This document shows positions 8,015 through 60,453 of a stretch of DNA of 64,000 bases, piece after piece. Position 1 is the stretch's first letter. Each line of letters begins with the position of its first letter. Under the pieces are notes generated by a model. The model did no database searches, was not told the DNA's origin, and saw only the letters and a program-made list of their open reading frames with translations. Source of the stretch: Mesorhabditis belari (taxonomy: Eukaryota; Nematoda; Chromadorea; Rhabditida; Rhabditidae); contig CAUEEP010000866.1 of assembly GCA_958450365.1 (NCBI GenBank), forward strand, positions 62,001-126,000, written 5' to 3'. A program made the translations under genes and the position numbers.

Positions 8015-8212
8015 TTTGCCTCCAAGAATGAAAGGAAACAAAAGAATTCAGCACGATCACTGGAAGATCGACGGATTCGAAATTGTCAACAACCAGAGTC
8101 AAAACAACAACTACTAAAACTCAATTTTTTTTTGTCTAAAATAGGTATTATGGGTGAATTTTAATGCTTAAACACTTTATTTCAACAACAACATAAACTC
8201 GTTTATCCGATC

Positions 8213-17009: not shown

Positions 17010-17181
17010 CGAAAGGAAACAAAAGAATTCAACACGATCTCTGGACGATCGACGGATTCGAAATTGTCAACAACGAGAGTCAAAAAAACAACTACAAAAA
17101 CGCAATTTTTTTGTCTAAAATAGGTAGTATGGGTGAATTTTAATGCTTAAACACTTTATTTCAACGACAGAAAAAGCGCGT

Positions 17182-20100: not shown

Positions 20101-23100
20101 ACGGATCAAAAACTCATGTTGCAAGCGTGCCTTCTCTATGACCCCAAAATGAAGAAATCAGCATCGAAGTCGCACCGAGTCTTTGTGAAACATTCGGAGA
20201 AAACATTTTGAGTGAAAGGACTTGCCAGGAATGGTTTCGACGTTTTTGTGAAGGGGATGGCAGCTTGGAAGATGGATATTGTCCAGTTGTCTTCGATAAT
20301 GCGGAGTTGCTGGAGTTGGATCCAACTCAAACTTTGCCCGAATTAGCCGAACACTTTAAATGGGATTCGAGCACAATTTCTCGACGCCTTGCGCTTATTG
20401 AAAAAAGGAATCGTTGTGGCCAATGGGTCCCACATGAATTATCCCCTGAAAACAAAGCCAATCGAGTTTTATGGTCTCGGTTTCTATTGAAAAAGGCTAT
20501 GGGCAGTGCTTTTTTGAAAACATGTTGATGATGGACGAAAAGTGGACATATTTCAATAATGCAACACGCAAAAGACAATAGTTGAGCAAAGGAGAAAGGC
20601 CTGTTCCGAAATCACATCCAGAACTTCACGGAAAGAAAGTTATGCTGTCGGTCTTTTGGAATATGAAAGTAATCGTTGATTTTGAATTAAGAAAATCTTC
20701 AAAAACTATAACTTCTCAAATCTACGCCGAACAGCTGAAGAAAGTTGATGAAATTCTACGAGAAAGAGGTGCTGATCCAAGGACAATCCATTTACTCGCT
20801 CACAATTTCCGGGTACACACATCAAACCTGGCTCAAAAAAATCATAGAAGAATTTGTGACTTGTGCCTCATCCGCCCTATTCGCCTGATCTCGCTCCCGC
20901 AGATTTCCACTTGTTCCTGTCTATGCAACACTCTCATGCAAATCTAAAGTTTAACAATCCTGAAGAAGTCGAAATTTGGGTGCAAGACTACTTTGTATCG
21001 CGGGACCCCGAATTTTTCGAATCAGACATCCGAAGTCTACGCAAAAAATGAAAGAAAATAGTTGGTAATAACGGCGAATATCTTTTGGAATAAAGTTGTT
21101 TTCTTATTGATTTTTGGCTTGTTCAAATGTTGGTTATATAATCCGCAGTTTCTTTTGCAAGTACCTAATAACAGTACCTCATTTTGTCATTGCAAGCTTG
21201 ATACGTTCCCATCAACATTGCTACGTCAGGCAGCTCGATAGCATGTTTGTATTCTTTACCTAGAAAAGACTTCATCAAAATGATTTCCATAGATAAACCA
21301 AAATCAGAAGAAAATTGGAGTGAATTTCCCTCAGCTGCATGAAAGATCGCCGTGCATTCGGAATCGAAAAAAATCGTGTTAAATTTAGGTTAGCTTTAAT
21401 TTTCTGTGAATGGATAGCTTTCAAGGGATAGTTGACAATCAGTTTATGGTAATTTACGACTTTTAAACCTTCAAGATCAGAGATATTTGAAAGCCTTGGG
21501 CTAAAGTGTTGAACGTTTTGATTAACAATAATAACCCGATCCAGACCACAATTGCTTTCCTTTGCCATGTTTTCTGAAAATGTTCAAATTTGTATAAAAC
21601 CTTAAAAAGTTTGACCTTCAAACATGCGAATTAAGAATTTTAAAGAAGAAATAAAAAAATCCAACCTTCAACTTTGCGAATCGTTATATGAAATTTGAGA
21701 CCACTTTCTGGTGTTAGACCATATGGGCTTGGATAGATGAGTAAGCGAATCCTGAAAGCTTGTCCAAGAAAAGTTGCTGCTTCGGCATCTTCATCATCAC
21801 GGTCCGTTCTATAGTTTTCATGAAGCTGTTAACATATTTTGGATAAAATCCGGCAATTGCCGCCATTGCTGACTGGCTAAGAGGCCTGTATCTTACAAGG
21901 AAATGGTCAGAAGTGATCGTGAGACGAAGAGGTGCAAACACAAGTCGAGTCCGGCGAGAACGGGCAATGGTTTTCGAGAAAAACGCTTTGCAAATTTAGG
22001 CTTTCTGAAAACGGAGCCTAGAGGTTAAAAAGAAAATCATCTCGCATCTCACTTCTTAACCTCTAGGCTCCGTTTTCCGAGTAGAAAGCCTAAATTTGCA
22101 ACGCGTTTTTCTCGAAAAACATTGCCCGTTCGCAAAAACTAAAAGCACTATCGTACTCGCCGGACTCGACTTGTGTTTGCTGCTCATTTTCGTCCCGAAA
22201 TCTCACGATCACTTCTGACCATTCCCTTGTTATTCGAGAGGTCACGGGTTCAATCCCGCTGGCTAGATTATTGGTTCTTTTTTCCCATATCTATAGGTTT
22301 TTTTCTTTCCTACATTTAGTGCTTAGGAATTGTGCTTGTGTATTGCTTGTACCACATTATTTGTGTGAATAAATGCATTTTTTTAAATAAAATCTCACCG
22401 TCCTATTGGGATTTGTACTTCACTGCCGTTTACTGACAAAATTTCGAAGAGGTACATGTAGCCGCTGTAACGACTATTACGTGGCTGAAAATCGTCGATA
22501 GTCAGCGTCAATTGATGATTTGGCGGTGGTTTAATCTGTAATTGTTTGGTGATATATCTGTAAATGTAACTTCAGCAATGTAGCTTGAGAAAAGCTCAAT
22601 AATCTCACAATCCAATTGCAATCAATGCTCTCCTGGTGTTTTTCTGGGTACCCAGGATTCTTGAGAATCATCGGTTCATCGTCGGTTTCATTCATTGTTT
22701 TCTTTTCTTTTTTATCGAAGCACTGTCCTAAAGGTTTAAATTTACATTTGAATTTGAAAATTGTAAATCTTCTTTCCTTATTTTGTTTAAGTATTAGGTT
22801 GATGCATAAGTCTTTTTGTTCCTTTTCGTCTGCCGTTTCAAGCCAACAAATGCACCAATTAAACTACGGTTGATTTCATTAGAAAAACCAATTATTTTTC
22901 TGCAAAATAACATTAAAACGGGTTTAAAAATATTTTATGCCTGGATTTTCTTGAGAGTATGAAGTCGGGTAGTCAAAAAGGGCTAACTCGATGATGCGGT
23001 TTAGACACCTTAGCTAAAGAAAACCTATCTTCGTGTCAATAGATAAAAGATAGAGAAAAAAAAGTTTGATATTTCGCCAAAATTTCAGAGAAATTCATTC

Positions 23101-26487: not shown

Positions 26488-27177
26488 ATGAAAACTCTCT
26501 GCTTGATCGCTCTCGGCTTGGCCGTCATGTAAGTCTTTTCAAGTTTAGAATCAAGATTCAAGTCAAGTAGACAAGTTTCTAGATAAACTCATAAGACTAA
26601 GTCTTAAACATTAAAAGAAAAACCTTCAGAAGATAATTCTTATAGTGTAACATCAGACTAGGATCTGTTCGGTATTAGAGCTAGTTGAATCTAGGCCTCA
26701 AATGAGTCCAGGCTTTCAAATCATTGAGCAATGACCTTATGAACTCTTGCGGTGTTGGAAAGATATATCAATTTCAGGGTTGTGGCTCAAGGACCTGGAG
26801 GTGGTGGCCGAGGAGGCGGTCAGCAAGGTGGCCAAATGGGAGGACAACAAGGAGGCCAAATGGGAGGACAGCAAGGAGGACAGATGGGAGGACAACAAGG
26901 AGGACAGCGAACTGGTCAACAAGGAGGATTTGGAGGACAACAGGGCGGTCAGATGGGAGGCCAACAAGGTGGACAGATGGGAGGACAACGTGGTGGACAG
27001 ATGGGAGGACAACAGGGCGGACAACAGGGCGGACAACAGGGCGGACAACAGGGCGGACAACAGGGTGGACAAATGGGCGGACAACGTGGTGGACAGATGG
27101 GAGGACAACAAGGAGGCCAAATGGGCGGACAAGGAGGTCAGATGGGCGGACAAGGAGGACGCCCTGGAGGAAGATAA
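26488..27177 (+). CDS. Secreted Gly/Gln-rich repeat protein (146 aa, two exons)
   Basis: Exon 1 (26488-26528) encodes a signal peptide, MKTLCLIALGLAV. Exon 2 (26778-27177) follows a TTTCAG acceptor and completes a Met codon split by the intron. The mature part starts VAQGPGGGGRGGG and is then a run of GGQQGGQM units (with GGQRGGQM variants), ending in GRPGGR before TAA. There is no cysteine after the signal peptide and almost no hydrophobic residue. Short, secreted Gly-rich proteins of nematodes are often antimicrobial-type or cuticle-associated; the Gln/Gly repeat fits that class but has no specific assignment. TATA box and AATAAA are both present, so this looks like an active gene. The repetitive DNA keeps several other frames open on both strands; only this frame has a promoter, signal peptide and splice sites. 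Confidence 0.8.
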
Positions 27178-38142: not shown

Positions 38143-38205
38143 TATTTTGTTCAGACAAATAGTCAACCTATGCAAGAAACAATCAATTTCATTGGTCATT
38201 GAACA

Positions 38206-40145
38206 ATGTTTATTCCAAGTGTATCGACAGAACAATGGATTTCAACAATATTTAATTGCACTTGGTTTCTCGCAACTTTTCTTGTACTTGTTACATTATA
38301 TTTTCTCATAAAGCAAAAGACTTTTGCTACGCGTGCTCATCGGATTTTGCAGATCAACTTGCTAGTGAGTGGCTTACAATAGTAACAGGGTTGATTTATG
38401 TAAAGCTGCGTCTCCTCTTCAAGACAGGCTAATAAGTTTTCGGGCTTCTCTAAAATTTTAGATCAATTAAAACCTCATTCTAATTGGTAAACTCAATAAA
38501 ATGAATAGCATCAATCAATTCCCCGATTCTGTAAACTCCTAGGCACAAGTTTACAGCTGAATATCTTCTTTTTGTAGCATCTACAAAGCAAAAGAGGAAT
38601 CTCTGTGTAAATGACTGGCGAGGTGTTCTTTATGCGCGCGCACAATCGCTCTTCATCAGGCAAAACGTCCTGGTATAGGACACTTCCGACGCCCTCTTGG
38701 AATCCTTGAGGGGAAGGAGAGGTGAGCAAACTGCTCAGTCTCTTCAGTTTGGTTGTTGCTATGCCCGAATCTGCCGATCAATTCCCGCCCCAATTCTGAT
38801 TGCATTTTTGCGACCATTCCACATCCTCCCAAGCCAAAACTAGTTGCAATACTCAAGGTTAAAATTACCTAGACTGTTAAATTACCTTTGATACCTCATA
38901 AATTATTGATAAACCGATTTATTTGAGTCATTTCTACATAAAACTTCATTAAGAAATTATAACTTACTTAGAATTCAGTTGAAGCATCTCAGTTCAAAGT
39001 GAACTACTACAATCTGGAAGAGATTTCTTTGGCAGATTGCCCCAAAGTATCAAAAGAGCTTTAGCTAGCTGCTCAAATCACTGACACCAGCACTTTCCTA
39101 TGGAAACCATTGTACATAGCAGACCAATGGGCTATGATTTTATTGGATGGCACTGACTCAGCGAATCCGTTGACTATCTCGGCCCTAGTGGTTGGTGTTT
39201 TTATGCGAAATCTGATCAGTCCTAGTTCTCTATAAAAAAAGTCCCTTCTTGGGTTAAATTGCACAAGTATCATTCCAGCTCATGAATTTCCTTGGCAATC
39301 TTTATTTCGTTGGAACTTTCTGTTTCAATGGAATCTATCGAACCGAACAAATTCACACAGAATGGAAAAAGATTATGAGATTTTTCTTCTACTTGACTAT
39401 CATTACGCTAACTTATGGTGGTGTTTGTATCATTGTCGTATGCTTCAGTTTCTATTTGGACGATTATGTGATTTTTGATCCGATTACGGTAGATAGTTCA
39501 CGAATTAGCTCATCAACTTTTTCAGATTTGCAAACTAAAACCTCCGATCTGCAATGTGAAGGATGTGGTGGTCGTGAATCTATCACCAGCTGGGGTGATG
39601 ATGTTTGAAATTCAACTACCGTGTCATGCCCTATTCTTCGTTCTTGTCTCGGTACTCTCAACCTCAGCTATAGTTGATTTTGCGCAAAAATCAAAGATGG
39701 CTTTGAGTCAAAAGACAAGAGAAATGCATTTATATTTTACGGTTATCTTTTTGTGTCAGGTATGCCTTCGCCGATAGCTTTCATGCCACTTTTTAGCTTT
39801 CTCTAACTTCTATATTCACTGTTTTTCCTTATTGTTTAGCCTCACTAGTTTTATTGGATTTTGTTGATGGAGAGATCTGGTTAATAAGTGAGTTGAACTA
39901 CTTAACGAAAGCAGAGAGATCGTCAAAGAATAAAGATCAATCTTTTAGTCTCTTCAATGGCAACTCTCTACTCAAGCCTTCATTCAATCTCCAATTCACT
40001 CACCATCCTTTTCGCCACAAAATCTTATCGATCGATCATCTTTGGATGGATTCGGATGCCATTGTTCTTAATGTCAGGAACAAAAACCACTCTTGAAACC
40101 GTTAGAGACTCGACCATTGTTGTTCAACGACGACCGAATAAATAG
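38206..40145 (+). pseudogene. Second-type serpentine receptor (unit X)
   Basis: Exon 38206-38364 encodes MFIPSVSTEQWISTIFNCTW plus a TM helix and KTFATRAHRILQINLL. Exon from about 39279 encodes LGNLYFVGTFCFNGIYRTEQ and a further helix. The next exon, from about 39524, encodes VVVVNLSPAGVMMFEIQL, a helix and MALSQKTREMHLYFTVIFLC, the TM5-loop-TM6 region. The last block (to 40145) encodes LHSISNSLTILFATKSYR, a typical chemoreceptor TM7. The LSxKTxxMH and SYR motifs fit the Srh/Sri/Str superfamily, but I cannot fix the class. Between the first two blocks an in-frame stretch (KEL, stop, AAQITDTSTFLWKPLYIADQ) has a TAG shared with unit Y. TM6 is also hard to place. Likely a pseudogene. Confidence 0.55.
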
Positions 40146-40179
40146 TACTTGTTGTTAGTACTTTTTGTACTTTTTGAGT

Positions 40180-41399
40180 CCAGTCGACTCTCTCTATAAA
40201 AATTTTTCTGTTATATAGAGCTTTCCGTTAAATGGGACTTCCGTTATGTAGAGAGAGGATTTCAAGTCCAAAAATTTTCTCCGTCATACAGAGTTTTTCA
40301 CTGCATTTTCATTTACTTAAGTGTTTTATTCATTTCTAAAAATAAATTCATAAGAAAAACAATGCAATCGTACCAATTTTGTTAAACTCAACTTTTAAAG
40401 ACTTATAAAAAAATTCGTTATCTTGTTGAGAACCGTGAAGGCGAATAGCTTTAAAACATTCTTTTATTTTTTTCCACAAGCTCTTTTGATTGTTGGCGAT
40501 GAAATCGAGGCTTCTTCAAATATTGATTCGCTTTGTGCTAAAATCGCATAAAAAGCGGCCTTCTTCAATCCATACTTTCCATAAGTTGAGCCTTCTGAGA
40601 ATTATTCGTTTGTTCATCACCTTTATTGCATTTGTGCAAATGGATTTCTCACCCAGAGCAGCTTTGTAAATAGTCAAATTTGCAAAAATCCAAAAAAAAT
40701 AAGCCGAGGAATGCGAGCTCCAGACTCCATAAAAACTTTAAATTCACGAACGCTTTTTTCAGGTTTTTTAGAAAACATGAAACGATTTAAAGTCTTGGCT
40801 TTAAGCACTTCGCTTTTCTTTTTGTTAGCACACTTTTCAGACTCTTATATAACAAGTTTCTCATTTAATATTGTTAAAAAAAAAGTAAACGAATGAAACT
40901 TTAAACTTTTGAACATTGAATATTCACAGTTAAAACGCAGCTGAAACGATTTTTTGTTCGTTTGGCATGATAAAAGCCAAGGTTGTGATTTATTTATCTT
41001 GTCACTGAATTAAATGGCAGCGGGGATAAAAATCTTTTACATAATTACGTTTACATAATTCCTTTACGTTCTTCTGGGTTGTGCAAATTGATTGATTGTT
41101 TTTGCAGAAATTTTTAAATTACAGTCTATTAATGGGACAAATTTGAGTAAAACTTGGCTTTTTTAACAGACTCTTTCTATAACAAAAGAAAAATGATCGT
41201 ATTTGTGCGCTCTGTAATCATTTTACTGTAATAATTGTTATTTTGGTGTTTTCCTTTCCATTTGAACTCGAAAACCAGTTCAAAAACAGGTTTTTAACAT
41301 AACCAAGCAGGTACTTTGGTTTCGGTTTTCAAATAACGAGAGATTTTCTTTTTCATTTGCATTTAACAAGTTGTAATTTAGAATTCTTCACTGTTTAGA
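40180..41399. other. Non-coding stretch with a pogo-like fragment
   Basis: CAGTCGACTCTCTCTATAAA at 40181 and a partly mirrored TTATGTAGAGAGAGGAT near 40240 resemble the pogo-like MITEs elsewhere. The first 450 bp have no counterpart in unit Y; from about 40630 the sequence again matches Y (50875 onward). No gene is visible. Confidence 0.45.
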
Positions 41400-41848
41400 A
41401 TGCAACCACGAAGATATATCAATGCTTGGATTCTTGTGGTAGGAGTTCTCATTGTTCTTGCCGTTATGGAGTTGAACAATCGACGGGTTTTCGTTGATCT
41501 CCTCACTACAACAATTAGACTAATCTCACCAACAACCACCACAACTTCAATGTCAATTGAAACAAGTTCAACCACGAAAAGTTTAGAGCCCAGTAAAGTC
41601 AGTTTTTCAATCAATATTTTATCTTTTACTTGAAAACAGCTTTAGCAATTTGACGAGTTTGACACATTCTTGATGATCAAAATATCTTGAATGACCGATC
41701 TTTAGCCATAACCAGTCTTAGAACTATAGTTTTACAAAATAAGTCTCATTTGCCCATCTTATGTTTCATTTTTCAGACTATGACACCAGTTCTTCAATCT
41801 AAACCTCCGCCTACGAGCGCTTCACCGGTTAACACGAAGTCAACATAG
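41400..41848 (+). pseudogene. Truncated 5' end of the GT31 glycosyltransferase (unit X)
   Basis: Exon 1 (41400-41597) encodes a type II membrane anchor (INAWILVVGVLIVLAVMEL) and a Thr/Ser-rich stem. Exon 2 (41777-41848) gives TMTPVLQSKPPPTSASPVNT and then TAG. Unit Y has nearly the same exon 1 (51914) followed by the rest of a GT31 gene. In X homology stops inside exon 2, at the edge of the duplicated unit, leaving an 89-codon stub. It could still make a small Thr-rich membrane protein, but it is best read as a truncated copy. Confidence 0.65.
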
Positions 41849-46700: not shown

Positions 46701-48194
46701 ATGACAGATCTGACCATCGTTGGGCAATCGATCATCTATTTCAATAGTACATTAGCATATTTAATGAATGGAATCCTCATCTATTTCATCCTCTTTCATA
46801 GCAGGAAAGATATGGGCATATCGATACTTGATGTTATCGTTTGCCGTTTTCAATCTTTTCGATCCAACAGTTCATTTAGCAGTGATGCCGGTGAGTTATC
46901 TTCTACTGGTATAGCCGGTATTTTTAACGCAAATTACATTTCCACAAGAAAGCTTTAGAGCTGGACCAAGACCCAATTTTCCAGGTCAAAACAAAGCCAA
47001 GGCAAACCAAAGCTGTAAAACAATGCATAAAACATAAATATTTAATGCAAATGCATCAAGAAAGCAAGGAAGTTGGTTAGGGGAAGTTTCGAACCCAAGC
47101 CGAAAACACTTCATACGTTCCATAAACTAGCAAACTATCCGTTAGACCACAGAAACCGCTGGAACTCCTTGTGGGAATGTTCACGAGATTCAGCGTAGAT
47201 TGACTCACTTTTGAGCCTATTCACTAAAGTGCACTACAATCAGCACTAATATATCGTTGCAAAATCCTCACTACCCATTTCCTAGACAATGCACGCCTAC
47301 GGATACGGCTATGCTCTGATGCCTACATCATTCTTGATGAACACCATCATACCAGCGCATTTGGGATTGTGCATATATGGAGCACTCTTCTCACAGGTTT
47401 TCGACTCTAATTTGCTTCTATAAAAACTCTTCAGAGCCTAGTGCAGTATTTCAGGACCACTTCCGGGAACCACTTTGGGAAATCTATGGCTTTGATGTGA
47501 ACAAGACGGCAATTGTCGGGCCATTGTACAAGGTTTCTATTTTATTTTTCGATGTAATAGATATTTTAGCGTCAAAACGAACTTGGCGAAGTGGTTTGGG
47601 ATTGGACGAATCTTTTTGCACTGGGAGTTGTTGAGCTAATACTTGGAGCATCGTTTGCTGTAACCATCTTTTGTACTTGGCAAATTCAAAAGACTTTGAA
47701 AGTGAGATTTCACCGAGTGAATCTCTTTAAAACAATCTTAAACCACGGCAATGAGCGAAAAGTCGATCAGGTTGCAACACGAGCCCTTCAGAGCACTATT
47801 GGTTCAGGTAAAGCAACAGTAAAAGAGCAATCTTTAGCAATTTTGACCTTACAAAAACTTCAAGAAGCTTTAGACTATTGTTCCGGGGATTTTTGAGTAC
47901 ACTCCTGGAGTTATTGCTTCATTCTGTCCGCTCTTTGGTGTCCCTCTTGGCCAATGGTGTACTCTGATTCCAATTCTCATTTCATTCTATCCATTTGTTG
48001 ACCCAATCTGCATGCTATATTTTATTAAGGATTATCGAAATGCGTTGATTACCAAGTTTGGTACAAGGTAGGTACTGGAAGTTTATCTGAAAAAGCTTGA
48101 TTTTAGAATCAGAGTCTTGGGTGCAAATGAACGTAAGAGATCACCATCTCCAAAGCTTTCAGTCCTCGAAATCTCAACTCCACAGAAGAAATGA
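46701..48194 (+). pseudogene. str-type chemoreceptor (unit Y, gene 2)
   Basis: It is the counterpart of 31145-37318. Exon 1 from 46701 (MTDLTIVGQSIIYFNSTLAY) has lost two bases in the GNYRY codons, shifting the frame. Exon 2 is 47286-47396. Exons 3 and 4 (TM3 and TM4) are deleted: the start of exon 3 runs straight into the intron before exon 5. Exon 5 is 47454-47531, followed by a functional-looking 37-bp intron (GTTTCT...TTTTAG), then TM5 from 47569, SEKSIRLQHEPFRALLVQ to 47807, and YPFVDPICMLYFIKDYRNAL from about 47889. The last exon ends at TGA (48192). With two exons missing it cannot make a receptor. Confidence 0.75.
46940..47172 (-). repeat. tRNA-headed (SINE-like) repeat, unit Y copy
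   Basis: The minus strand from about 47172 carries GTGGTCTAACGGATAG and, 45 bp on, GGCTTGGGTTCGAAAC, the two internal pol III promoter boxes of a tRNA. It is followed by a tail shared with 31380-31620. The anticodon arm is not clear, so it is not called as a tRNA gene. Confidence 0.45.
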
Positions 48195-48570
48195 TGAATT
48201 TGTAATTAAAAGACTGAAATTAAAAGACGAAAAGACATTCTTGACCTTTCTTGAATAGAGTATTGTATTTGTTAAAATCTGGTTTGTGAGCAACTAACTT
48301 TTTCTTTTTTTCTCTCTCTTTTGCCCTATTCATATTCTTTTTCCTTTTTTTACACAGGTGGATTTGCCAAGTTTTATAAAACTAATACTTGTTACTAAAA
48401 AGTACAAACCTTAATGAAAAATTAATACATTTGCTAAACCCCGAGAACTACACGAAAGCTGAATTTAAAGAAAATGTGACACCAAAGCACCTGTTTACAT
48501 CAGTAATACTTTTTTCAGACAAATACTCAATCTATGCAAGAAAAAAATTAATTTTATTTGTCATAAAACA

Positions 48571-50508
48571 ATGTTTATTCCAAGTTTATCGACACAACAA
48601 TCGATTTCAACAATATTTGATTGCACTTGGTTTCTCTCAACTTTTCTTTTACTTGTTACATTATATTTTCTCATAAGGCAAAAGACTTTTGCTACTCGTG
48701 CTCATCGCATTTTGCAGATCAACTTGCTGGTGAGTGGCTTACAATAGTAACAAGATTGGTTTTTCTAAAGTTGCGTCTCCTCTCCAAAAAAGGCTAATGA
48801 GTTTCCGGGTTTCTCTAAAATTTTAGACCAATTAAAACCTCGTTCCAATTGGTAAACTCAATAAAATGAATAGCTTCAATTAATAGCTGAAAACTGGCGT
48901 AAATGAATGTAAATGACTGGCAAGGTGTTCTTTATGCGCGCGCACAATTGCTCTCCATCTGGAAAACCGTCCGGGTATAAGATCCTTTTCTTTTGGAAGC
49001 GTCGAAGGAGAAAGGGTGGTAAGTGACCGGGCTCACTTTAGTCAGTCACTATGCCCAAATCCCCCGGATCAATTCCTGCTCCAATTCTGGCTGCATTGTT
49101 GCTACACATTGTTGTGCATTGTTGTGCATTGTTGCCACATCCTCCCAAGCCAAAACCAGCTGAAAAACTCAAGGTTGAAACTGACCTGAAAAACGGATTT
49201 TATCTTCTAATCCCTGATAAATTATTGATAAATCGATTTACTTTAGTCATTTTTACATAAAACTTGATCGAAATTTGTACAATAGTAATGAGAATCGGTC
49301 CTTTTTTAATAAAAAACAAATTATCGAACCTGGTTGAACCATCTCAGTTCAAAATGAACCAGTGCAATCTGGAAGACATTCCTCTGGCAGATTGCCTCAA
49401 AATATCAAAAGAGCTTTAGGTAGCTGCTCAAATCACTGACACAAGCACTTTCCTATGGAAACCATTGTACATAGCAGACCAATCGGCTATGATTTTGTTG
49501 GATGGCATTGACTCAGCGAATCCGTTGAGTATCTCGGCCCTAGTAGTTGGTGTTTTTATGCGAAATCTCAGCCCTAATCCTCCATAAAAAAGCCTCTTCT
49601 TGGGCTAAATTGTACAAGTGTCATTCTAGCTTATGAATCTCCTTGGCAACCTTTATTTCGTTGGTACTTTCTGCTTTAATGGAATCTATCGAACTGAACA
49701 AATTCACACAGAATGGAAAAAGATTATGAGATTTTTCTTCTACTTGACTATCATTACGCTAACTTATGGTGGTGTTTGTATCGTTGTCGCATGCTTCAAT
49801 TTCTATTTGGACGATTGTGTGATTTTCGATCCGATTACGGTAGATAGTTCACGAATTAGCTCATCAACTTTTTAAGATTTGTAAATTAAAACCTCCGATC
49901 TGCAATGTGAAGGATGTGGTAATCGTGAATCTATCACCAGCTGGGGTGATGATGTTTGAAATTCAACTACCATGTCATGCCTTATTCTTTGTCCTTGTTA
50001 CCGTACTCTCAACCTCGGCGATAGTTGACTTTGCGCAAAAATCGAAGATGGCTTTGAGTCGAAAGACAAGAGAAATGCATTTATATTTTACTGTTATCTT
50101 TTTGTGTCAGGTATGCCTTCGACGATGGCTTTCACGATAGCTTTCATACTATTATTTAGCTTTCTCTGACTTCTATATTCACTGTTTTTCCTTATTTTCT
50201 CACCACACTGGTTTTATTGCATTTTGCTGATAGACAGATCTGGTTGATAAGTGAGTTGAACTACTTAACGAAAGCAGAGAGATCGTCAAAGAATAAAGAT
50301 CAATCTTTTAGTCTCTTCAATGGCAACTCTCTACTCGAGCCTTCATTCAATCTCCAATTCACTCACCATCCTTTTCGCCACAAAATCTTATCGATCGATC
50401 ATCTTTGGATGGATTCGCATGGCATTTTTCTTAATACCAGGAACAAAGCCCCCTCTTGAAACCGTTAGAGAGTCGACCATTGTTGTTCAACGACGACCGA
50501 ATAAATAG
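48571..50508 (+). pseudogene. Second-type serpentine receptor (unit Y)
   Basis: Copy of 38206-40145. Exon 1 from 48571 reads MFIPSLSTQQSISTIFDCTW plus TM helix and KTFATRAHRILQINLL. The following blocks are LLGNLYFVGTFCFNGIYRTE at about 49636, VIVNLSPAGVMMFEIQLPCH at about 49919, and LHSISNSLTILFATKSYR at about 50335 to the stop at 50508. The TAG after KEL (about 49418) is shared with unit X. The acceptor before the ICKLKPP exon is TTTTTAAG here against TTTTTCAG in X. The two copies differ by scattered substitutions only, so both decay states are similar. Confidence 0.55.
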
Positions 50509-51913
50509 TACTTGTTGTTAGTACTTTTTGTACTTTTTGAGTAATTTTTGTTAAACAAGAATTGTAGAAGTCTTTCTTGAAATTTTTAACAAATACACCA
50601 AGCACTAGAAAAGTTGAACAGCTTACACAAAAGCCTACAACAACTGCATGCAAGTCTTCTTGCAAGATTTCAATTTGCATTCTAAATGATGATTTAGTTT
50701 GATTCAAAGGTAATTTTTGAGCATTCTACCCAGCAGTTTTAACTCGAAAAGTTTTTTGATTCATTAAACCGGTAAAGGACAATAAATTCCCTGATCAAAG
50801 AAATCAACAATCCGCAACAAATCAAAAGAAACAATTGCACAAATGCGGGGTTTTGACATTTCTTGCATTTATGCAAATGCATTTCTCACCCAGAGCAGCT
50901 TTGTAAATAGTCAAACTCGCAAAAGTTCAAAAAAATGAGCCGAGGAATGCGAACTCCAGACTCCATAAAAACTTTAAATTCACGAACGCTTTTTTCAGGT
51001 TTTTTAGAAAAGATAAAACGATTTAAAGTCTTGGTGTCGTGACGATCTCGTGATCGAGATCGCCACGTATGGAAATGGCCAGCTAGACACCTATGTGGAC
51101 GAACGCCTATTGTGCGAGATTTGATATGCGTCGCTATCCGTTCAACTCCATTGTGTGTAAGACGAGACCAACGCCTGAGTTCCGTATAAAAGCGATGTGA
51201 ACGAGCTGCCGACGTGTGCCGTGGAGTGTCTCTACTCTCCCAATCTCAAACCACTGAACCAACCATTATCGCTGTAATAAAGATTATATCTAAACCAACA
51301 ATAATCACCACACTTGGCTTTAAACTCTTCGCTTTTCTTTCTGTTAGCACACTTTTCAGACTCTTATATAACAAGTTTCTCATCTAACATTGTTAAAACA
51401 AAAAGTAAACCAATGACACTTTAAACTTTTGAATTTTGAATATACACAGTTAAAAAGCAGCTGAAACGATTTTTTGCTTGTTTGGCATCATAAAAGCCAA
51501 GGTTATGATTTAGCTCTCTTGTCACTGAATTAATTGGCGGCGCGGATACAAATTTTTTACATAATTATAGAGTTCTTCTAGGTTGTCCAAATTGATTGGC
51601 TGTTTTTGCAGAAATTTTTGAATTGAGAGTCTATTAATGAGACAAATTTGAGTAAAACTTGGCTTTTTAGCAGAATCGAAACATTTTATCTTTCTATAAC
51701 AAAAAAATGATCGTATTTGTGACCTCTGTAATCAGTCTGCTGTAATAATTGTTATTTTGGTGTATTCCTTTCCATTTGAACTCGAAAACCAGTTCAAAAA
51801 CAGGTTTTTAACATAACCAAGCAGGTACTTTGGTTTCGGTTTTCAAATAACAAGGGATTTTCTTTTTCATTTGCATTTAACAAGTTGTCATTTAGAATTC
51901 TTCACTGTTTAGA
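50509..51913. other. Intergenic stretch between the 7TM gene and the GT31 gene (unit Y)
   Basis: Apart from the solo LTR at 51035-51312, nothing coding is seen. From about 50875 it parallels X 40630-41399. Confidence 0.5.
51035..51312. mobile_element. Solo LTR (278 bp)
   Basis: It begins TGTCGTGACG and ends ATCACCACA (TG...CA), with a perfect 5-bp duplication CTTGG (51030-51034 and 51313-51317). Unit X has the empty site with a single CTTGG at about 40796. The interior contains GTATAAAAGC (TATA box) and AATAAAG (polyadenylation signal), as expected in an LTR, and is clearly more GC-rich than its surroundings. No internal retroelement genes remain. Confidence 0.88.
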
Positions 51914-54579
51914 ATGCAACCACGAAGATATATCAATGCTTGGATTCTTGTTGTAGGAATTCTCATTGTTCTTGCCGTTATGGAGTTGAACAATCGACGA
52001 GTCTTCGTTGATCTCCTCACTACAACAATTAGACTAATCTCACCAACAACCACCACAACTTCAATGCCAATTGAAACAAGTTCAACCACGAAAAGTCTAG
52101 AGCCCAGTAAAGTCAGTTTTTCAATCAATATTTTATCTTTTACTTGAAAACAGCTTTAGCAATTTGACGAGTTTGACAGATTCTTGATGATCAAAATATC
52201 TTGAATGACCGATCTTTAGCCATAACCAGTCTTAGAACTATAGTTTTACAAAATAAGTCTCATTTGCCCATCTTATGTTTCATTTTTCAGACTATGACAC
52301 CAGTTCTACAATCTAAACCTACTAGCCAAGCGAAAATTCCCTCGAAAAACACCCCCATTGTCAGCTTTAGAGATTTTAGAAGGAGCCCGATCAAATGGAA
52401 CACATCCGGTAACATTATTTTAAAGTTATTAGCCAATAAAGTGGAAAATTTTACTTCACTTTTCTGATTTAATCTCACAGTTTTAGTTCTTTCAACCTTT
52501 CCCATTCACGAGGGATTTTTGTCCGCCCGAAGTCAAGGTAGAGTGCGTTTCTTCAATACTAGCTAGCAAAGGAAAGCTAAGGAAAGCTAATTTCCAATTA
52601 AAATTTGATGGGTTTTGATTCAAATCCGAGTTTAGACTCTATTTGTGGTTCAATCTTGGGTCATGAATCGTGGCCGGAGAGACGCAATCCGAGCTACTTA
52701 TGCTAACGGTGTCTGGGAAAAGCATGTAAGTTCTGAATTGATTTCAAGTAAAAAAATTCAGTTAGCCATTGATAAGATAAATGTTTAAGTTCTCCTATCA
52801 AACACTTTTCGTTGTTGGTCGAACAACAGATGAAACTGTGGAGAGGAGTACTATAGAAGAAGCCAATCTGAATGGAGATTTGCTGCAGATTGACTATGCG
52901 GATACATATCGGAATATGACGATAAAGGTCTGATAATTTGTTTTCTAATAAAGGAGGATCGATTCTCATTATCATTGTACAAATTTTGATAAAGTTTTAT
53001 ATAGAAATTAGTCAAGTAAATGGGTTTATCAATAATTTATCAAGTATTAGAAGATAAAATTGGCTTTGCAGACCATTTGAGTATTTCAGCTGGCTTTGCT
53101 TTAACACGATCCAGAATTTCTAACAAAAATACAATCAAATTTAAGTCAAAAATTGATTTGGGTGATTTGAGCATAGTGACGCTGCAGAATTTGAGCATAG
53201 TGAAAGAAGATATTCGGCTGTAAATTTCTTTCCCGGGTTTTCGGGGTCAGGGGGAGTCGATTGGAGCTATTCATTTTGTTGAGTCTACTAATTGAAACTC
53301 AGGTTTTATAGATTTATGGTTTTGTAGATATATAGATTTATGCATTTTATAAAAGTATATGAGAATCAGTGCCAATTCGAAGCCTTTCTTTAAATGGTAA
53401 TTTCAGTATCTCAATTGGATGCGATTTGTTCGAGACAATTGTCCGAACGTGACGCTTGTCATCAAAATTGATGGTAGGTTAACGGAAAACTACAGATGTT
53501 CACTGAAAACTGGCTCTTGCAGCATTTTAAGCCTTGGATTTGAAATGTTTCCAACTTACACTGCTAAAGTGACTCTTTCAACAATTGCAGGAGCACTCAA
53601 CAATTGCTAGTAACTCTATCACTAAGGTTTATCATTAAAGTTGACTTGCTAAAGATTGGTGCGACAAGTGAAAGTAAAGTAAAGCCTTGAACTGTGAAGT
53701 AAAGCCTTGAATTTCAAAGATTGAATCCATTCTTAGACGACATCCTTCCACATATCTTTTGGCTCTTCGAAGATCTCAATAGCGGAAAAATCGGCAAAGA
53801 AAACACGATCACTTGTATGCAATATCGGGATCGAGTGAGCCGAGATCGAAATTCACCATAGTTTGTCAAAGTTTGTCAAACAACCATTCAAATGACGGTA
53901 ATTTCAGCTATGTCTCAGTCGATCACACCCTGATTCCCAATTGGGGAACATACTGCCTGGGATTGGCTCAAATTTTAGTCAGCTTCTTTTTTCCAAAAGC
54001 TAAACAGATATTTTAGTCGATCGACTTGCTTCCCGAAATGATTGCAAGTGTTGAGAAACGTCGATATTATAATTCTGTGAGTTAAACCCGTTAAATCGTT
54101 TTTTAAAACCCGTTGCTCAATTGATTGTCGATTTCAGGTAGATGATGCTTTTTTGACTGGGGAAATTGCTTGAAATTGGTGCTAAACATGATTTCACTCA
54201 ATATGCAAATAAGTGAGTCTCAGAGTCAATAATGGCTTTGATTTGAGCTGCAAGTCTGGCTAGATCTATCAATTGGGAAATTCCGATTGTTGATCGATAA
54301 TTCAAAGTCTTTAGATGGACTTTAACGGCTGATATCACACGGCTAATGCTCAATAGAGAGGTCTTATTTGGTAAGCTTTCTTACGAAAAACTTTTTCTAG
54401 ATATTATCAAACCTTCTGATTCTGATTTTTTTATCAAACCTTCCTATTCAGGAGCTTATGGGCCAACCGCTAGAATGAAACGGGTATTTCACGATTTGGA
54501 GCTTTTGAGCGGTCTTGTCACTGATCCACCAGATAACTTTGCTCCAGTGCGTAAAGCTGGCCCGGGTATTGGGAAATGA
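51914..54579 (+). pseudogene. Family 31 glycosyltransferase (beta-1,3-galactosyltransferase-like), probably broken
   Basis: Exons: 51914-52111 (type II anchor and Thr-rich stem), 52291-52408, 52481-52537, about 52640-52725 (TLFVVQSWVMNRGRRDAIRA, the RRxAIRxTW motif), to 52927 (FVVGRTTDET, DTYRNMTIK), 53407-53473 and 53737-53860. The last junction forms IDDD, the metal-binding DxD motif, followed by FWLFEDLNSGKIG and RDRVSRDRNSP. Then 53908-53977 (YVSVDHTLIPNWGTYCLGLA), 54017-54076 (SIDLLPEMI), 54138-54212 (VDDAFLTG, the EDVxxTG motif), 54315-54370 and 54452-54579. Such enzymes sit in the Golgi and extend O-linked or glycolipid sugars. One extra T before KFSYQT (about 52790) and one in ATTGCTTGAA (about 54167) break the frame. 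The rest is well preserved, so the decay is recent, or these are sequence errors. Confidence 0.7.
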
Positions 54580-56133: not shown

Positions 56134-56380
56134 TAGCCAGAGTCAAACTTTTAATCCGGTCATTTCTATAGGCAATTTTACGCGATTTCAATTTTTAAAG
56201 AGCAGAATTTCACTGTGCAAATAACCACACAGTTGACTTTTCATAATTTCCCAAAATAAGCTTTTCTGATCATAGCTGAGCAAATGACTTTGACTTTTCG
56301 TTCAAAAAAGTGTGACGGGTTCTAGATTGGTCAGACTTCTATTAAAGTCATGAATTAGACGGAAAAATATCGAAAGCACC

Positions 56381-57035
56381 ATGCTCTTGACTTTACTTTT
56401 CTTCTCGATATTCCTGTTTGGAAAAGCTTTTTGTGACACTTGTCTTGATGTTCATTGTCCGGCGAAATGGGCTTACTTGGCAAAGACGAAGAGTTGCTAT
56501 TTTGTGCAGGTAATCACGAAAGATACCAGGATTAAGAATTCTTTTTTCCAGGATTTCACCTATCCGGATGCAGAAAATTGGCAGCTATACAACTGGACAA
56601 CGGCTGAATTGAATTGTAAAAGAATGGGCGCACACTTGGTGTCGATTCACTCGGTCGAGGAAGACAACTTTGTTTATGGTTGGTTATTGGGATAAAACCA
56701 TTTGATCGTAAGATGCTTAGAGTTGATTCTTTCTCGTGTTGGTCGCTACTTGAATGACCAGCCATGTTACAATGACCTAGCTGCCTGGATTGGGTATTTC
56801 GGATCTGGAATTGTGGGAACTGGCAATTGGACTGATGGAACACCAGTGGATTATATCGGCAGAACGCCATGGACTCCATGGGTTGTTGGTGCTAAGGCAA
56901 GCCCTAATATTGTTGAAAAGCTCACAAAATTTGTAGATGCTCAACGATCCAACTTGTCACTTCCATCAATGGGCTTGGAGTCAAGTGGAAGAAAAGCTCT
57001 CGCGATATGTCTGCAAGAAAGCAGCAACTGGATGA
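56381..57035 (+). CDS. Secreted C-type lectin domain protein (four exons)
   Basis: Exon 1, 56381-56509, encodes a signal peptide (MLLTLLFFSIFLFGKAFC) and the start of the domain (CPAKWAYLAKTKSCYFVQ). Exon 2, 56552-56678, has AELNCKRMGAHLVSIHSVEE. Exon 3 from 56721 has AAWIGYFGSGIVGTGNWTDG and TPVDY. Exon 4, 56937-57035, has NDPTCHFHQWAWSQ and ends RYVCKKAATG before TGA. All phases agree. The last intron is either GC-AG (56897-56936, 40 bp) or GT-AG (56882-56936, 55 bp); both keep the frame. It is a single-domain nematode lectin-like protein; the region that should bind calcium (EPN/WND) is not conserved in an obvious way, so ligand type is unknown. AATAAA follows at 57053. It appears intact, unlike the lectin fragment at 4773. 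Confidence 0.82.
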
Positions 57036-57052
57036 CCTGTTGAGCCAATGCA

Positions 57053-57058: not shown

Positions 57059-58080
57059 ACTATCAAACGTTCCCTCAAAGTATACATCAAAAACTTTCCT
57101 TACTTTGAGTAAAAAGCTTATTCTTCTCAAAACTTCTCAGCAACTCGTTTGCTAAATAACACAGCAACTTGAATATTGTGTTTCTTTTTGAATAAAGAAC
57201 AAATTATTTGCCAATTTGGAAAATACCTCTGTTCTCTTCATCTATTGTCATAGATGAAGCTGATGAAGTTTTATCGGAAACCTAATTATTGAGTCAAAAA
57301 AATTTGTGAAAAGGAGTTGGAATTTTTTTCTTGGTTTTTTTGTTCTTATCTCTTTTAATAGGATTGCAAGAAGAGTGATTTCAAAGAATGGTTTCAAATT
57401 GAGAGTAGCTGAGTTTAGTACAAAAAAATGTCGACAAAATAATGGAGATACCCGTTGATCTATCTGGAGTCAACTTAGAGTGGATTGGGCATGGCGCTTC
57501 GGGATCAATATTTCTTATTGACTCTTTCGAACCGTGAGTTTTGTTGTCTAAAGGTATTTTTGATTGTTTATTAGAATTCTGACTTTGAAATTTTAGAGAT
57601 TTGAAGCAATTAAAACTTTAGAGCAATTTCATTAAAACACATCATCACCAGAGCCGATACTCGCCGAAATGAGTTCCTTATTGAAGTGGAAACTCTCAAA
57701 CGATTAAATCACCCTAATATTGTGAAATATCTCGGAATCGGAAAATTCAAACAAAAACGGACAAACATTTGGGCTGAAGGGATCTTGATGGAATATTGTG
57801 GGCGAGGCGCTCTGTGCCACTGTAAGCATTTAATTTTAGCAAAAGGAAACAAATTAATATTTAGTAATTGACAATCCGGCCATAATTTACACAATTTACA
57901 ACGTAGTTTCATGGACGCGTCAACTGATTAAGGCTTTGGGATATTTAGCCGAGAATAGAGCGGTTCACCGAGACATCAAGCCAGCCAAGTATTATGTTTA
58001 GAACGCCAAAGTTCATATAAATTTTTTTAGTGTTTTTGTTAGCACATACTTTGAGCTAAAGTTAGGAGATTTTGGATCAA

Positions 58081-58475
58081 TTAAAGAAATCACTCGGTCA
58101 TGCTCATCATTCACGCCAGCGGTGGGCACGAGGCGATACATGAGCCCAGAACAGTCAAAAAGCATCTCTGGAAAGAGGGTTGGACATGAAACTTATGCTT
58201 ATTATTATATTGGGTTGGTGGGTATGACGTGGCACGTTTTTTCCAATGAAACCCTAAAGATGTAAACAAATACGAGAGAGAGGGACCTGTGAAAAATAGA
58301 TAAGGGAACATTAACTCTCGCGAAAACTAGGGACTTTCACTTTCGACATTCAGTCGACTCTCTTTAAAACGAAATGGATGGACCAAGAAATTCTTTCGTT
58401 ATATATGTAGAGTGCCGTTGTATACAGCTTAGCGTCGGTTGGGACCAAAATCCCATTCTGTTATATAGAGTTTTC
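58081..58475 (+). repeat. Left arm of a perfect 395-bp inverted repeat
   Basis: It begins TTAAAGAAATCACTCGGTCA inside the kinase activation-loop exon and ends inside the pogo-like MITE at GTTATATAGAGTTTTC. The right arm (59378-59772) is the exact complement with no length difference that I can see. Confidence 0.85.
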
Positions 58476-58511
58476 CACTATATAGAGGTCCGTTTTAAAG
58501 AAAGTCGACTG
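58351..58511. mobile_element. Pogo-like MITE in the left arm
   Basis: CAGTCGACTCTCTTTAAAAC and its near complement GTTTTAAAGAAAGTCGACTG bound a 161-bp palindromic element containing TTATATAGAG-type units. The copy in the right arm is cut at 59378, inside the element. Confidence 0.75.
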
Positions 58512-59377
58512 TATTTGGTTTTTGGGATTTTACTTTACTTTGTTCTAACTATTGAAAATCTACCACCTGAAGCTCTGCGACAAGTTATACTGTGCGAATT
58601 CCTGCAAGGACATAAGGGCCTCTAGTGCTCAGCTAATATTGAGAATGTTTATGTGGAAGGATCAGCTCCACTACGGACATGTGCAAACTGATTTGTTAAA
58701 TTCCGTTCTGGGGATGAATCTTCGAAAACAAAGTGAGGGGTCTAGCTGGATAATGCGAAGTTGATCAAAATTTTCCAAACCAATAAAAGGCTTTTTTTTT
58801 GCGAAATAGCAGCAGAATTATCATTTGATCATACCATAATACTCGAACATTGCAGACACCTGGGTTTAAACCGCTACCAATAAAATGAGCACAAATTTTA
58901 CAAAATAATGGCAAAGATCTCGCATGATTTGAAGTTGTTGAAGAAATTTCATTTCAAAACATGTTCCAAGTCATCAACACCAACACAATATAATTGAGCA
59001 ATAAGTTGAGCTCAGCATTTAAAAATGATTCTTAGAATGCATTTAAATATAAATGAAATATTTGAAATAAACATTTGACATCTACCAATAAAATGGGCAC
59101 AAATTTTACAAAATAATGGTAAAGTCGGCATTTTAAGTTGTCGCATCGAAGTGACGTCTACAGCATGGGCTTAGTCATTTGGGAAATGATCGAACGGAGG
59201 TTGTGTTTCATTTTATTTTGAGTCAAATAAAAGTAACGCTTTAGGAAAGTCTTTGCTCGATTTGGCAGCCACTATGACTACGGGCTATTCGCTACCGAAG
59301 ACAGGCAACTCATCGACGTTGAGGTGCTTGAATGTGAACCTGAAATTCGTTTCACTGTTGAAAAGTGAGAAAAGTGA

Positions 59378-59772
59378 GAAAACTCTATATAACAGAATGG
59401 GATTTTGGTCCCAACCGACGCTAAGCTGTATACAACGGCACTCTACATATATAACGAAAGAATTTCTTGGTCCATCCATTTCGTTTTAAAGAGAGTCGAC
59501 TGAATGTCGAAAGTGAAAGTCCCTAGTTTTCGCGAGAGTTAATGTTCCCTTATCTATTTTTCACAGGTCCCTCTCTCTCGTATTTGTTTACATCTTTAGG
59601 GTTTCATTGGAAAAAACGTGCCACGTCATACCCACCAACCCAATATAATAATAAGCATAAGTTTCATGTCCAACCCTCTTTCCAGAGATGCTTTTTGACT
59701 GTTCTGGGCTCATGTATCGCCTCGTGCCCACCGCTGGCGTGAATGATGAGCATGACCGAGTGATTTCTTTAA
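59378..59772 (-). repeat. Right arm of the 395-bp inverted repeat
   Basis: Complement of 58081-58475. Just outside it the minus strand continues with a different sequence, reading KPYLISFGLKEI where the left arm reads LKLGDFGSIKEI, so the right arm appears to be joined to a diverged kinase paralogue. Confidence 0.85.
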
Positions 59773-59977
59773 GGCCAAAACTAATTAAATATGGTTTGAG
59801 GAATTGAAAGGAAACAACGGAAGCAAAGTTCATTTCCGGATCGTTACAAAACTGGGGGGTGTGTTTGAGTTTTTTTTAAGAAATAGTTTTGATCAAAAAT
59901 CAATCAATTATTTTATTTACACCCTGATATGTCCATGAATAGAAAATTCAAAGAAACTTCTTTGACGAAAGTTTGAA

Positions 59978-60010
<33 letters not shown>

Positions 60011-60175
60011 GGGTTGTTTAAAAATTTTTTTTTAAATAATATTTTTTAAAATTTTTTTTTTTTTTATTTTTAGAGGGGTTTGGTTTTTTTTTTTATAAGG
60101 GGGGGGGTTTTAAATTTTTTTTTTTTTTTTTTTTAAGGGGGGGGTTTTTTTTTTATTTTAAAAGGATTAATTTTT

Positions 60176-60209
<34 letters not shown>

Positions 60210-60237
60210 GTTTTTTTTTTTTTACTGGGGGGGGGGG
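59978..60237 (+). repeat. Poly-T / poly-G homopolymer block
   Basis: About 260 bp consists almost only of long T runs with short G8-G10 and A runs. It ends in the tip of a MITE (TTTTAAACGGAAGTACGAAA to about 60292, then CAGCCTAATA). It encodes nothing. Confidence 0.8.
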
Positions 60238-60453
60238 TTGGTTTTAAACGGAAGTACGAAAAAGAACGAAAAGACTTTGACAGCCTAATAAATTTTCATT
60301 TGAACACAAAAGATACACAAAACTTTAATTACAGCATTGTACAAGATACATTGTACGGTACAAGACTACAACATTGAACCTACATATTAACTTGACAAAA
60401 GAATTCGAGATCCAAAAAGGTAACTTCACCGTTCTTGCATCATTTAGAGTTTT

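What the first reader, a model, noticed from the sequence alone, without database searches (positions are those of the whole stretch)
57442..59772. Kinase exons are in permuted order and carry a perfect 395-bp inverted repeat
The order is N-lobe to activation loop, then the extreme C-terminal piece, then subdomain IX and the middle of the C-lobe. The activation-loop exon plus half a pogo-like MITE is repeated exactly in inverse orientation at 59378-59772. The right arm continues into sequence reading LISFGLKEI, which looks like a diverged kinase paralogue lacking DFG. This suggests a duplication-inversion with gene conversion between two kinase copies, or a hairpin-type assembly error; equal arm lengths with no mismatch point to a very recent event.
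Basis: partly seen in the sequence, partly recalled or inferred. Interest (0 to 1): 0.75.

Follow-up and report, generated by a model that had tools for sequence, protein, structure and literature searches.

The report
Truncated kinase allele with inverted copy
In one assembled copy of a nematode kinase gene, the gene's end is missing and a perfect 395-base backwards copy of an upstream piece stands in its place, most likely the scar of a DNA repair or replication mistake; the gene's pieces are in normal order, not shuffled.

Summary
The 395-bp inverted repeat is exact (58081-58475 / 59378-59772). The kinase exons are not permuted: six exons with GT-AG introns lie in order, equal in length to those of contig C273 (six of six) and paralogue C542 (five of six). 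What I take to be the 'extreme C-terminal piece' lies in intron 4, in a dispersed mariner-like repeat with a Mos1-type transposase HTH. The 'diverged paralogue' (LISFGL) is not kinase: C273 carries that flank at 99% with no kinase beside it. Protein records on contigs of the same lengths name the species Mesorhabditis belari, asexual and heterozygous. C273, probably the other haplotype, has no right arm; its exon 6 runs on into exon 7 (subdomain XI) and a tail. In the window these 3.3 kb are replaced by the inverted copy. Both joints carry microhomology, the left one a 9-bp filler. Best reading: a haplotype-specific four-point template switch (MMBIR-like) that removed the kinase's 3' end. A chimeric molecule or assembly error is not excluded: no reads were available, and a homopolymer-rich, apparently corrupt island starts 205 bp beyond the right arm. 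A known kind of scar, unusually long.

The parts
57442..57533 (+). kinase exon 1 (N-lobe, glycine-rich loop)
   Evidence: open frame, gtgagt donor; same length in C273 and C542; deposited protein P0001 matches Pkinase, E 2.9e-37
57622..57821 (+). kinase exon 2
57865..57988 (+). kinase exon 3 (HRDIKPA; in this model the TAG at 57998 is intronic)
58043..58178 (+). kinase exon 4 (DFG, activation loop, subdomain VIII). The deposited protein P0001 starts this exon slightly earlier (adds VFVS)
59138..59199 (+). kinase exon 5 (subdomain IX, SDVYSMGLVIWEM)
59245..59364 (+). kinase exon 6 (subdomain X region), last kinase exon present in the window; an in-frame TGA overlaps the donor
58081..58475 (+). 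left arm of the inverted repeat: last 98 nt of exon 4, start of intron 4, 5' end of a mariner-like element, first 125 nt of a MITE
59378..59772 (-). right arm: exact reverse complement of the left arm, absent from C273
58210..58988 (+). mariner-like element in intron 4, TIRs TTGGGTTGG.../TTGTGTTGG..., flanked by TA; interior differs between window and C273
58351..58511 (+). MITE (CAGTCGACTCTCTTTAAAACG-type ends) nested in the mariner-like element and shared with C273; TA on both sides in C273, on the right side only in the window (left reads TT)
   Evidence: Pfam HTH_48; stop seen; repeat at 36 other listed places
59360..59383 (+). left junction: GAAAAGTGAG (kinase), 9-bp filler repeating AAAAGTGAG, then GAAAAC of the arm source
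59771..59772 (+). right junction: AA shared between the end of the arm source and the C273 sequence rejoined at C273:649
59773..59977 (+). flank rejoined after the event; 1 mismatch in 205 and 1 gap against C273; begins with a dispersed repeat, not kinase
59978..60240 (.). homopolymer-rich island, apparently corrupt consensus (59978-60242: 67% T, 17% G, 0.4% C); C273 has about 425 ordinary bases here; right edge good to a few bases

Best explanation
The locus is a collinear protein-kinase gene of Mesorhabditis belari with a nested mariner-like element and MITE in intron 4. In the window's version the 3' part (exon 7 with subdomain XI and the tail; about 3.3 kb relative to C273) is gone, and a 395-bp reverse-complement copy of the exon 4/intron 4 stretch about 0.9 kb upstream stands in its place. 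The likeliest mechanism is one germline break-repair or replication event with template switching, in four points. The growing strand left its template at about 59369, re-copied 9 bp, re-primed at GAAAA on the opposite strand at about 58475, copied back to 58081, and rejoined the original direction at C273:649 through AA. Shown: the structure, the collinear exons, a C273 state without the arm, microhomology at both joints. Inferred: that C273 is the allele, that the window state is derived throughout, that the event happened in the animal, and the polymerase path.
For: Arms 395 of 395. C273 is homologous over much of the window and lacks the right arm; its exon 6 leads to exon 7, which C542 also has in the same place and length of 73 nt. 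No third locus comes near: next best is C542 at 60-67% and a few pieces of 25-28 residues, or up to about 40, at 65-76% (143 of 1092 candidates scored). Deposited proteins: P0001 (425,247-bp contig) ends at ...RFTVEK; P0002 (31,340-bp contig) goes from exon 6 into exon 7 and a tail. Arm ends match no exon or element boundary. Joints share only GAAAA and AA, with a 9-bp filler copied from next door, which I judge too little for an overlap-based assembly join. Arms have 0 differences where kinase-region divergence from C273 (3.0-8.2%) would give 12-32. Sequence next to the arm is sound: 1 mismatch and 1 gap in 205 against C273. Inverted templated insertions with microhomology are described for MMBIR (PMC8421209, passages), and four-switch-point events make perfect inverted repeats (PMC8794818, passages).
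Against: No reads were available. An apparently corrupt island starts 205 bp past the right arm, and C273 ends at its far side with only 17 shared bases, part of repeat-like sequence, so collinearity beyond the island is weakly supported. The 395-bp insert is far longer than the insertions described in the passages seen. C273 could be a close paralogue rather than the allele, and its deposited protein P0002 skips most of the kinase exons that I predict. The right flank differs from C273 by only 0.5%; at that rate 2 differences between arms would be expected and 0 is unremarkable (P = 0.14), so youth rests on the kinase-region or genome-mean rate. AA at the right joint could be chance.
Confidence: 0.62

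Rival explanations
1. Artefact: a chimeric molecule (library preparation or amplification) or a faulty local consensus put an inverted copy into contig C647; the animal has an intact kinase at both alleles.
For: Homopolymer-rich island 205 bp away. A pattern of this kind hits 18 other places; the 10 that were read are all homopolymer-rich. A published M. belari assembly (217 contigs, so not this version) had regions split by allele divergence and indels (PMC10456839, passages). Whole-genome amplification often makes chimeric, in particular palindromic, fragments (PMC6218980, search listing only).
Against: A fold-back read maps the second segment to about the same location, within 200 bp, on the other strand (PMC12870357, passages); here 902 bp of unpaired sequence and two joints would be needed. 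Of four other islands traced, two (C546, C687) have another contig with ordinary sequence of similar length there, so an island can mean bad bases without a bad join. Five islands held with 1.5 kb on each side show no inverted repeat of 60 nt at 80%; of four held in 4-kb stretches two show none and two weak ones (76 columns at 80%; 238 at 82%).
Confidence: 0.25
2. Real, but made in two or more steps: an inverted duplication first, then a separate deletion joining it to C273:649, possibly with later homogenising of the arms.
For: The structure does not fix the order of events; the region holds several mobile elements and decayed copies.
Against: No intermediate is seen in C273 or in the listed matches (a capped list); one event explains both joints.
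Confidence: 0.13
3. One reading: shuffled kinase exons plus gene conversion between two inverted kinase copies.
For: None beyond the exact repeat.
Against: Exons collinear in three loci; the piece between exons 4 and 5 is a mariner-like repeat; no kinase sequence beyond the right arm.
Confidence: 0

Closest known systems
Four-point template switch mutations (PMC8794818; passages seen)
   Same: Reverse-complement copy of a nearby stretch, made by leaving and re-entering the template; yields a perfect inverted repeat able to form a hairpin
   Different: 395 bp and a 3.3-kb skip; the largest pattern mentioned in the passages seen, in rRNA genes, is up to 59 bp
MMBIR templated insertions (PMC8421209; passages seen)
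   Same: Insertion inverted relative to a nearby template with microhomology at the joints
   Different: That study's search tool looks for templates within 100 bp; here the template is about 0.9 kb away and a large deletion accompanies it
Polymerase-theta deletion-insertions in C. elegans (PMC5068794; passages seen)
   Same: Deletion plus templated insert, very short priming homology, repeated priming (compare the 9-bp filler)
   Different: There 37-44% of inserts map within 20 bp of the break, 47-50% are too short to place, and 2-3% come from inter- or intrachromosomal places more than 1 kb away; about 30% of templated inserts are perfect. Here 395 bp, exact, from about 0.9 kb
Mos1-type mariner element and TA-type MITE
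   Same: HTH_48 transposase fragment, TIRs, TA flanks in intron 4
   Different: Passengers only: the repeat-arm ends do not coincide with their ends

Membership tests
Template-switch (MMBIR-like) inverted templated insertion | Insert is the reverse complement of a nearby template | tested here: met
   395 of 395
Template-switch (MMBIR-like) inverted templated insertion | Microhomology at both joints | tested here: met
   GAAAA (plus 9-bp filler) and AA; AA alone could be chance
Template-switch (MMBIR-like) inverted templated insertion | A state without the insert is known | tested here: met
   C273 lacks it; C542 supports exon 7 as ancestral
Template-switch (MMBIR-like) inverted templated insertion | Event present in independent DNA molecules | not testable with these tools
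   no reads held
Polymerase-theta end joining | Insert templated close to the break | tested here: inconclusive
   template about 0.9 kb away and 395 bp long; unusual, but 2-3% of inserts in PMC5068794 come from far away (passages)
Fold-back read artefact | Second segment maps to the same place (within 200 bp) on the other strand | tested here: not met
   902 bp between the arms and a second joint into new sequence; definition
Permuted kinase gene | Exons out of order relative to relatives | tested here: not met
Mos1-type mariner insertion in intron 4 | Transposase signature | tested here: met
   HTH_48 just above its cut-off, with one in-frame stop dropped from the query; C273's different interior gave no Pfam match
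Mos1-type mariner insertion in intron 4 | TIRs with TA target duplication | tested here: met
Hairpin siRNA locus | Transcript spanning both arms and arm-matching small RNAs | not testable with these tools
   no RNA data; of four hexamers sought between 59365 and 60000 the only hit is ATTAAA at 59784, past the right arm

The most novel reading that the evidence does not exclude
The event turned one allele into a natural RNAi construct. Transcripts from the kinase promoter run through exon 6 into the right arm (first polyA-like signal at 59784), fold into a perfect 395-bp double strand, and feed siRNAs that silence the intact allele (C273) and close paralogues in trans. It would be a dominant silencing allele born in a single template switch in an asexual, permanently heterozygous animal.
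Probability: 0.06. Interest if true: 0.65.

Novelty: new member of a known kind. Interest (0 to 1): 0.3.

Why it matters
If real, it is an unusually long single-event template-switch scar with a version without it at hand on another contig, in a nematode whose asexual females keep heterozygosity. It shows a gene losing its catalytic-domain end while a perfect hairpin is created. As a caution, it shows how sequence of a mobile element in an intron can pass for a displaced kinase exon, and that homopolymer-rich islands in this assembly should be checked before such readings.

Tried and rejected
Permuted exons: rejected. Diverged kinase beyond the right arm: rejected. Transposition as cause of the repeat: rejected, since arm ends fall inside exon 4 and inside the MITE. 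Structural RNA: no Rfam match in the window at gathering scores.

Islands as a sign of misjoins: weakened. Of four islands searched two had a contig with ordinary sequence of similar length in place of the island, one (C550:1,664,780) had a contig lacking the stretch, and one (C690) had no second contig matching its flanks. Against calling all islands corrupt: the C550 island sits in a G/T-rich minisatellite and a related locus at C550:492,883-496,118 matches straight through it at 94%, so that one may be genuine sequence. The reversed-pattern control (23 and 8 against 25 and 9) is uninformative because the pattern reads nearly the same backwards. Islands as a mark of hairpin DNA (nanopore base calling fails at inverted duplicates, PMC7229812, passages): inconclusive. 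Of the two intact counterparts read, C86 holds an inverted repeat (194 columns, 80%) and C50 none; the sequencing technology of this assembly is not known to me.

Kinase family: by sequence the closest solved structures to a first exon model were STE20-like and other STE/MAP3K-type kinases (best 60 of 487 shown); no finer placement was made. Literature: titles and abstract starts of the listings (20 of 72; 17 of 17 papers naming M. belari; 5 of 3,225) show no report of this allele; not exhaustive.

Full report
What is there. The window is C647:62001-126000 of a 207.6-Mb, 714-contig assembly. Proteins from contigs of exactly the lengths of C647 (425,247) and C273 (31,340) are recorded as Mesorhabditis belari. 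The inverted repeat is in the sequence as described: 58081-58475 against 59378-59772, 395 of 395, 902 bp between; one gap extends it to about 400 columns.

The kinase is collinear. Predicted exons of 92, 200, 124, 136, 62 and 120 nt, all with GT-AG introns, read through as 244 residues of a kinase domain lacking its end. C273 has the same six lengths plus a seventh exon of 73 nt, which I read as subdomain XI. The paralogue C542 has 92, 200, 124, 126, 62, 120 and 73, with an exon 4 ten nt shorter that shifts its frame (pieces also by tblastx). The deposited protein P0001 agrees except for a slightly earlier start of exon 4 and matches Pkinase at 2.9e-37. The deposited C273 protein P0002 skips most of exons 2-5 but goes from exon 6 to exon 7 and a tail. 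Between exons 4 and 5 lies a mariner-like element, 58210-58988, with TIRs and TA flanks, containing a Mos1-type transposase HTH just above Pfam's cut-off. A MITE (58351-58511) sits within it. The element family is listed at 36 other places (capped list). C273 has the same element ends and MITE but a different interior, which gave no Pfam match; I recall it as resembling a mariner transposase C-terminus.

The version without the arm. C273 aligns in reverse to much of 12.7-60.0 kb of the window, with rearrangements, and in part to sequence beyond the window. It has one copy of the arm only. Its exon 6 is followed by an intron, exon 7, a tail, a decayed second transposase (weak Pfam DDE_3 and Transposase_1, below cut-off), and at C273:649 the same sequence that follows the right arm in the window. 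So relative to C273 the window lacks about 3.34 kb and holds 395-400 bp of inverted sequence there. Exon 7 in C542 argues that its presence is ancestral; parts of the 3.34 kb may instead be gains of C273. A search with the kinase protein finds no third locus near these two: C542 is next at 60-67%, with a few short pieces elsewhere (25 to about 67 residues) at 65-76%. That is as expected of two haplotypes. The published account of M. belari reports about 1.3% heterozygosity, and regions where divergence and indels between alleles prevented a unique assembly (PMC10456839, passages; an assembly of 217 contigs). The kinase region here differs by 3.0-8.2%, the right flank by 0.5%, a block near 51-53 kb by 1.0%. 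Allelism of C273 is therefore likely, not shown.

Junctions. Left: GTTGAAAAGTGAGAAAAGTGAGAAAACTC, with kinase sequence to GAAAAGTGAG (59369), a 9-bp repeat of it, then the arm source entered at GAAAAC. Right: arm source ...TTTAA meets C273 ...TAAAGGCC as TTTAAGGCC, sharing AA. In my judgement such short overlaps do not arise from overlap-based joining of contigs; they arise in a molecule, in the animal or in the tube.

Age. Arms with 0 of 395 differences are younger than the C647/C273 split if that split is measured in the kinase region (12-32 expected) or by the published mean (5.1 expected, P = 0.006). The right-flank rate would allow 2 (P = 0.14). 'Very recent' cannot be made more precise.

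Artefact question. From 59978 to about 60240 the sequence is 67% T, 17% G and 0.4% C, where C273 has about 425 ordinary bases. A pattern search found such signatures at 18 other places; ten were read and are homopolymer-rich. In two of four traced, another contig carries ordinary sequence of similar length, which points to base-level failures; one, in C550, may be genuine G/T-rich sequence. Inverted repeats near other islands were absent in five of five 3-kb loci, and absent in two and weak in two of four 4-kb loci. Inverted duplicates are known to spoil nanopore base calls (PMC7229812, passages), so the island beside this repeat could even be a consequence of a real hairpin, but one of two counterparts read is no proof. 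I hold the event real with moderate confidence.

Function. The window allele runs into TGA at the exon 6 splice donor, without subdomain XI; a truncated, probably inactive kinase is the default expectation (inference). Whether the 395-bp hairpin is transcribed is unknown; the only polyA-like hexamer of the four sought between 59365 and 60000 is at 59784, just past the right arm, which by chance alone would not be surprising in AT-rich DNA.

Noticed in passing
59978-60240 and 18 other places in G000: Homopolymer-rich islands (T/G, A/C, T/C or A/T) of up to several hundred bases. For two of four traced, ordinary sequence of similar length exists on another contig; one (C550) may be genuine.
   Followed up: partly
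C273:13,975-18,326 against C647:about 129,600-136,000: This block of C273 aligns in the opposite orientation to the rest of the contig, so the two copies differ by an inversion or a rearranged join.
   Followed up: no
47437-52950: 98.7% identical to C273:11744-6244, while most other aligned blocks over 500 bp are about 84-95%; a patch of low divergence between the two copies.
   Followed up: no
8127-14066 / 17106-22475 and 38177-41483 / 48542-51997: Large direct duplications about 8.4-9.0 kb and 10.4-10.5 kb apart, pieces 90-97% identical.
   Followed up: no
26791-27165: Degenerate 12-bp tandem array, 18 registers found.
   Followed up: no
L052:1367-1891 (C687): A roughly 525-bp element with inverted ends, 98-100% identical at 38 other listed places besides C50 (capped list), which suggests a very recent burst.
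   Followed up: no
C542:2807059-2807184: The kinase paralogue has a 10-nt shorter exon 4 that shifts its frame.
   Followed up: partly
56354-57043: Open frames resembling a secreted C-type lectin-like protein (recalled, not tested) next to the kinase.
   Followed up: no
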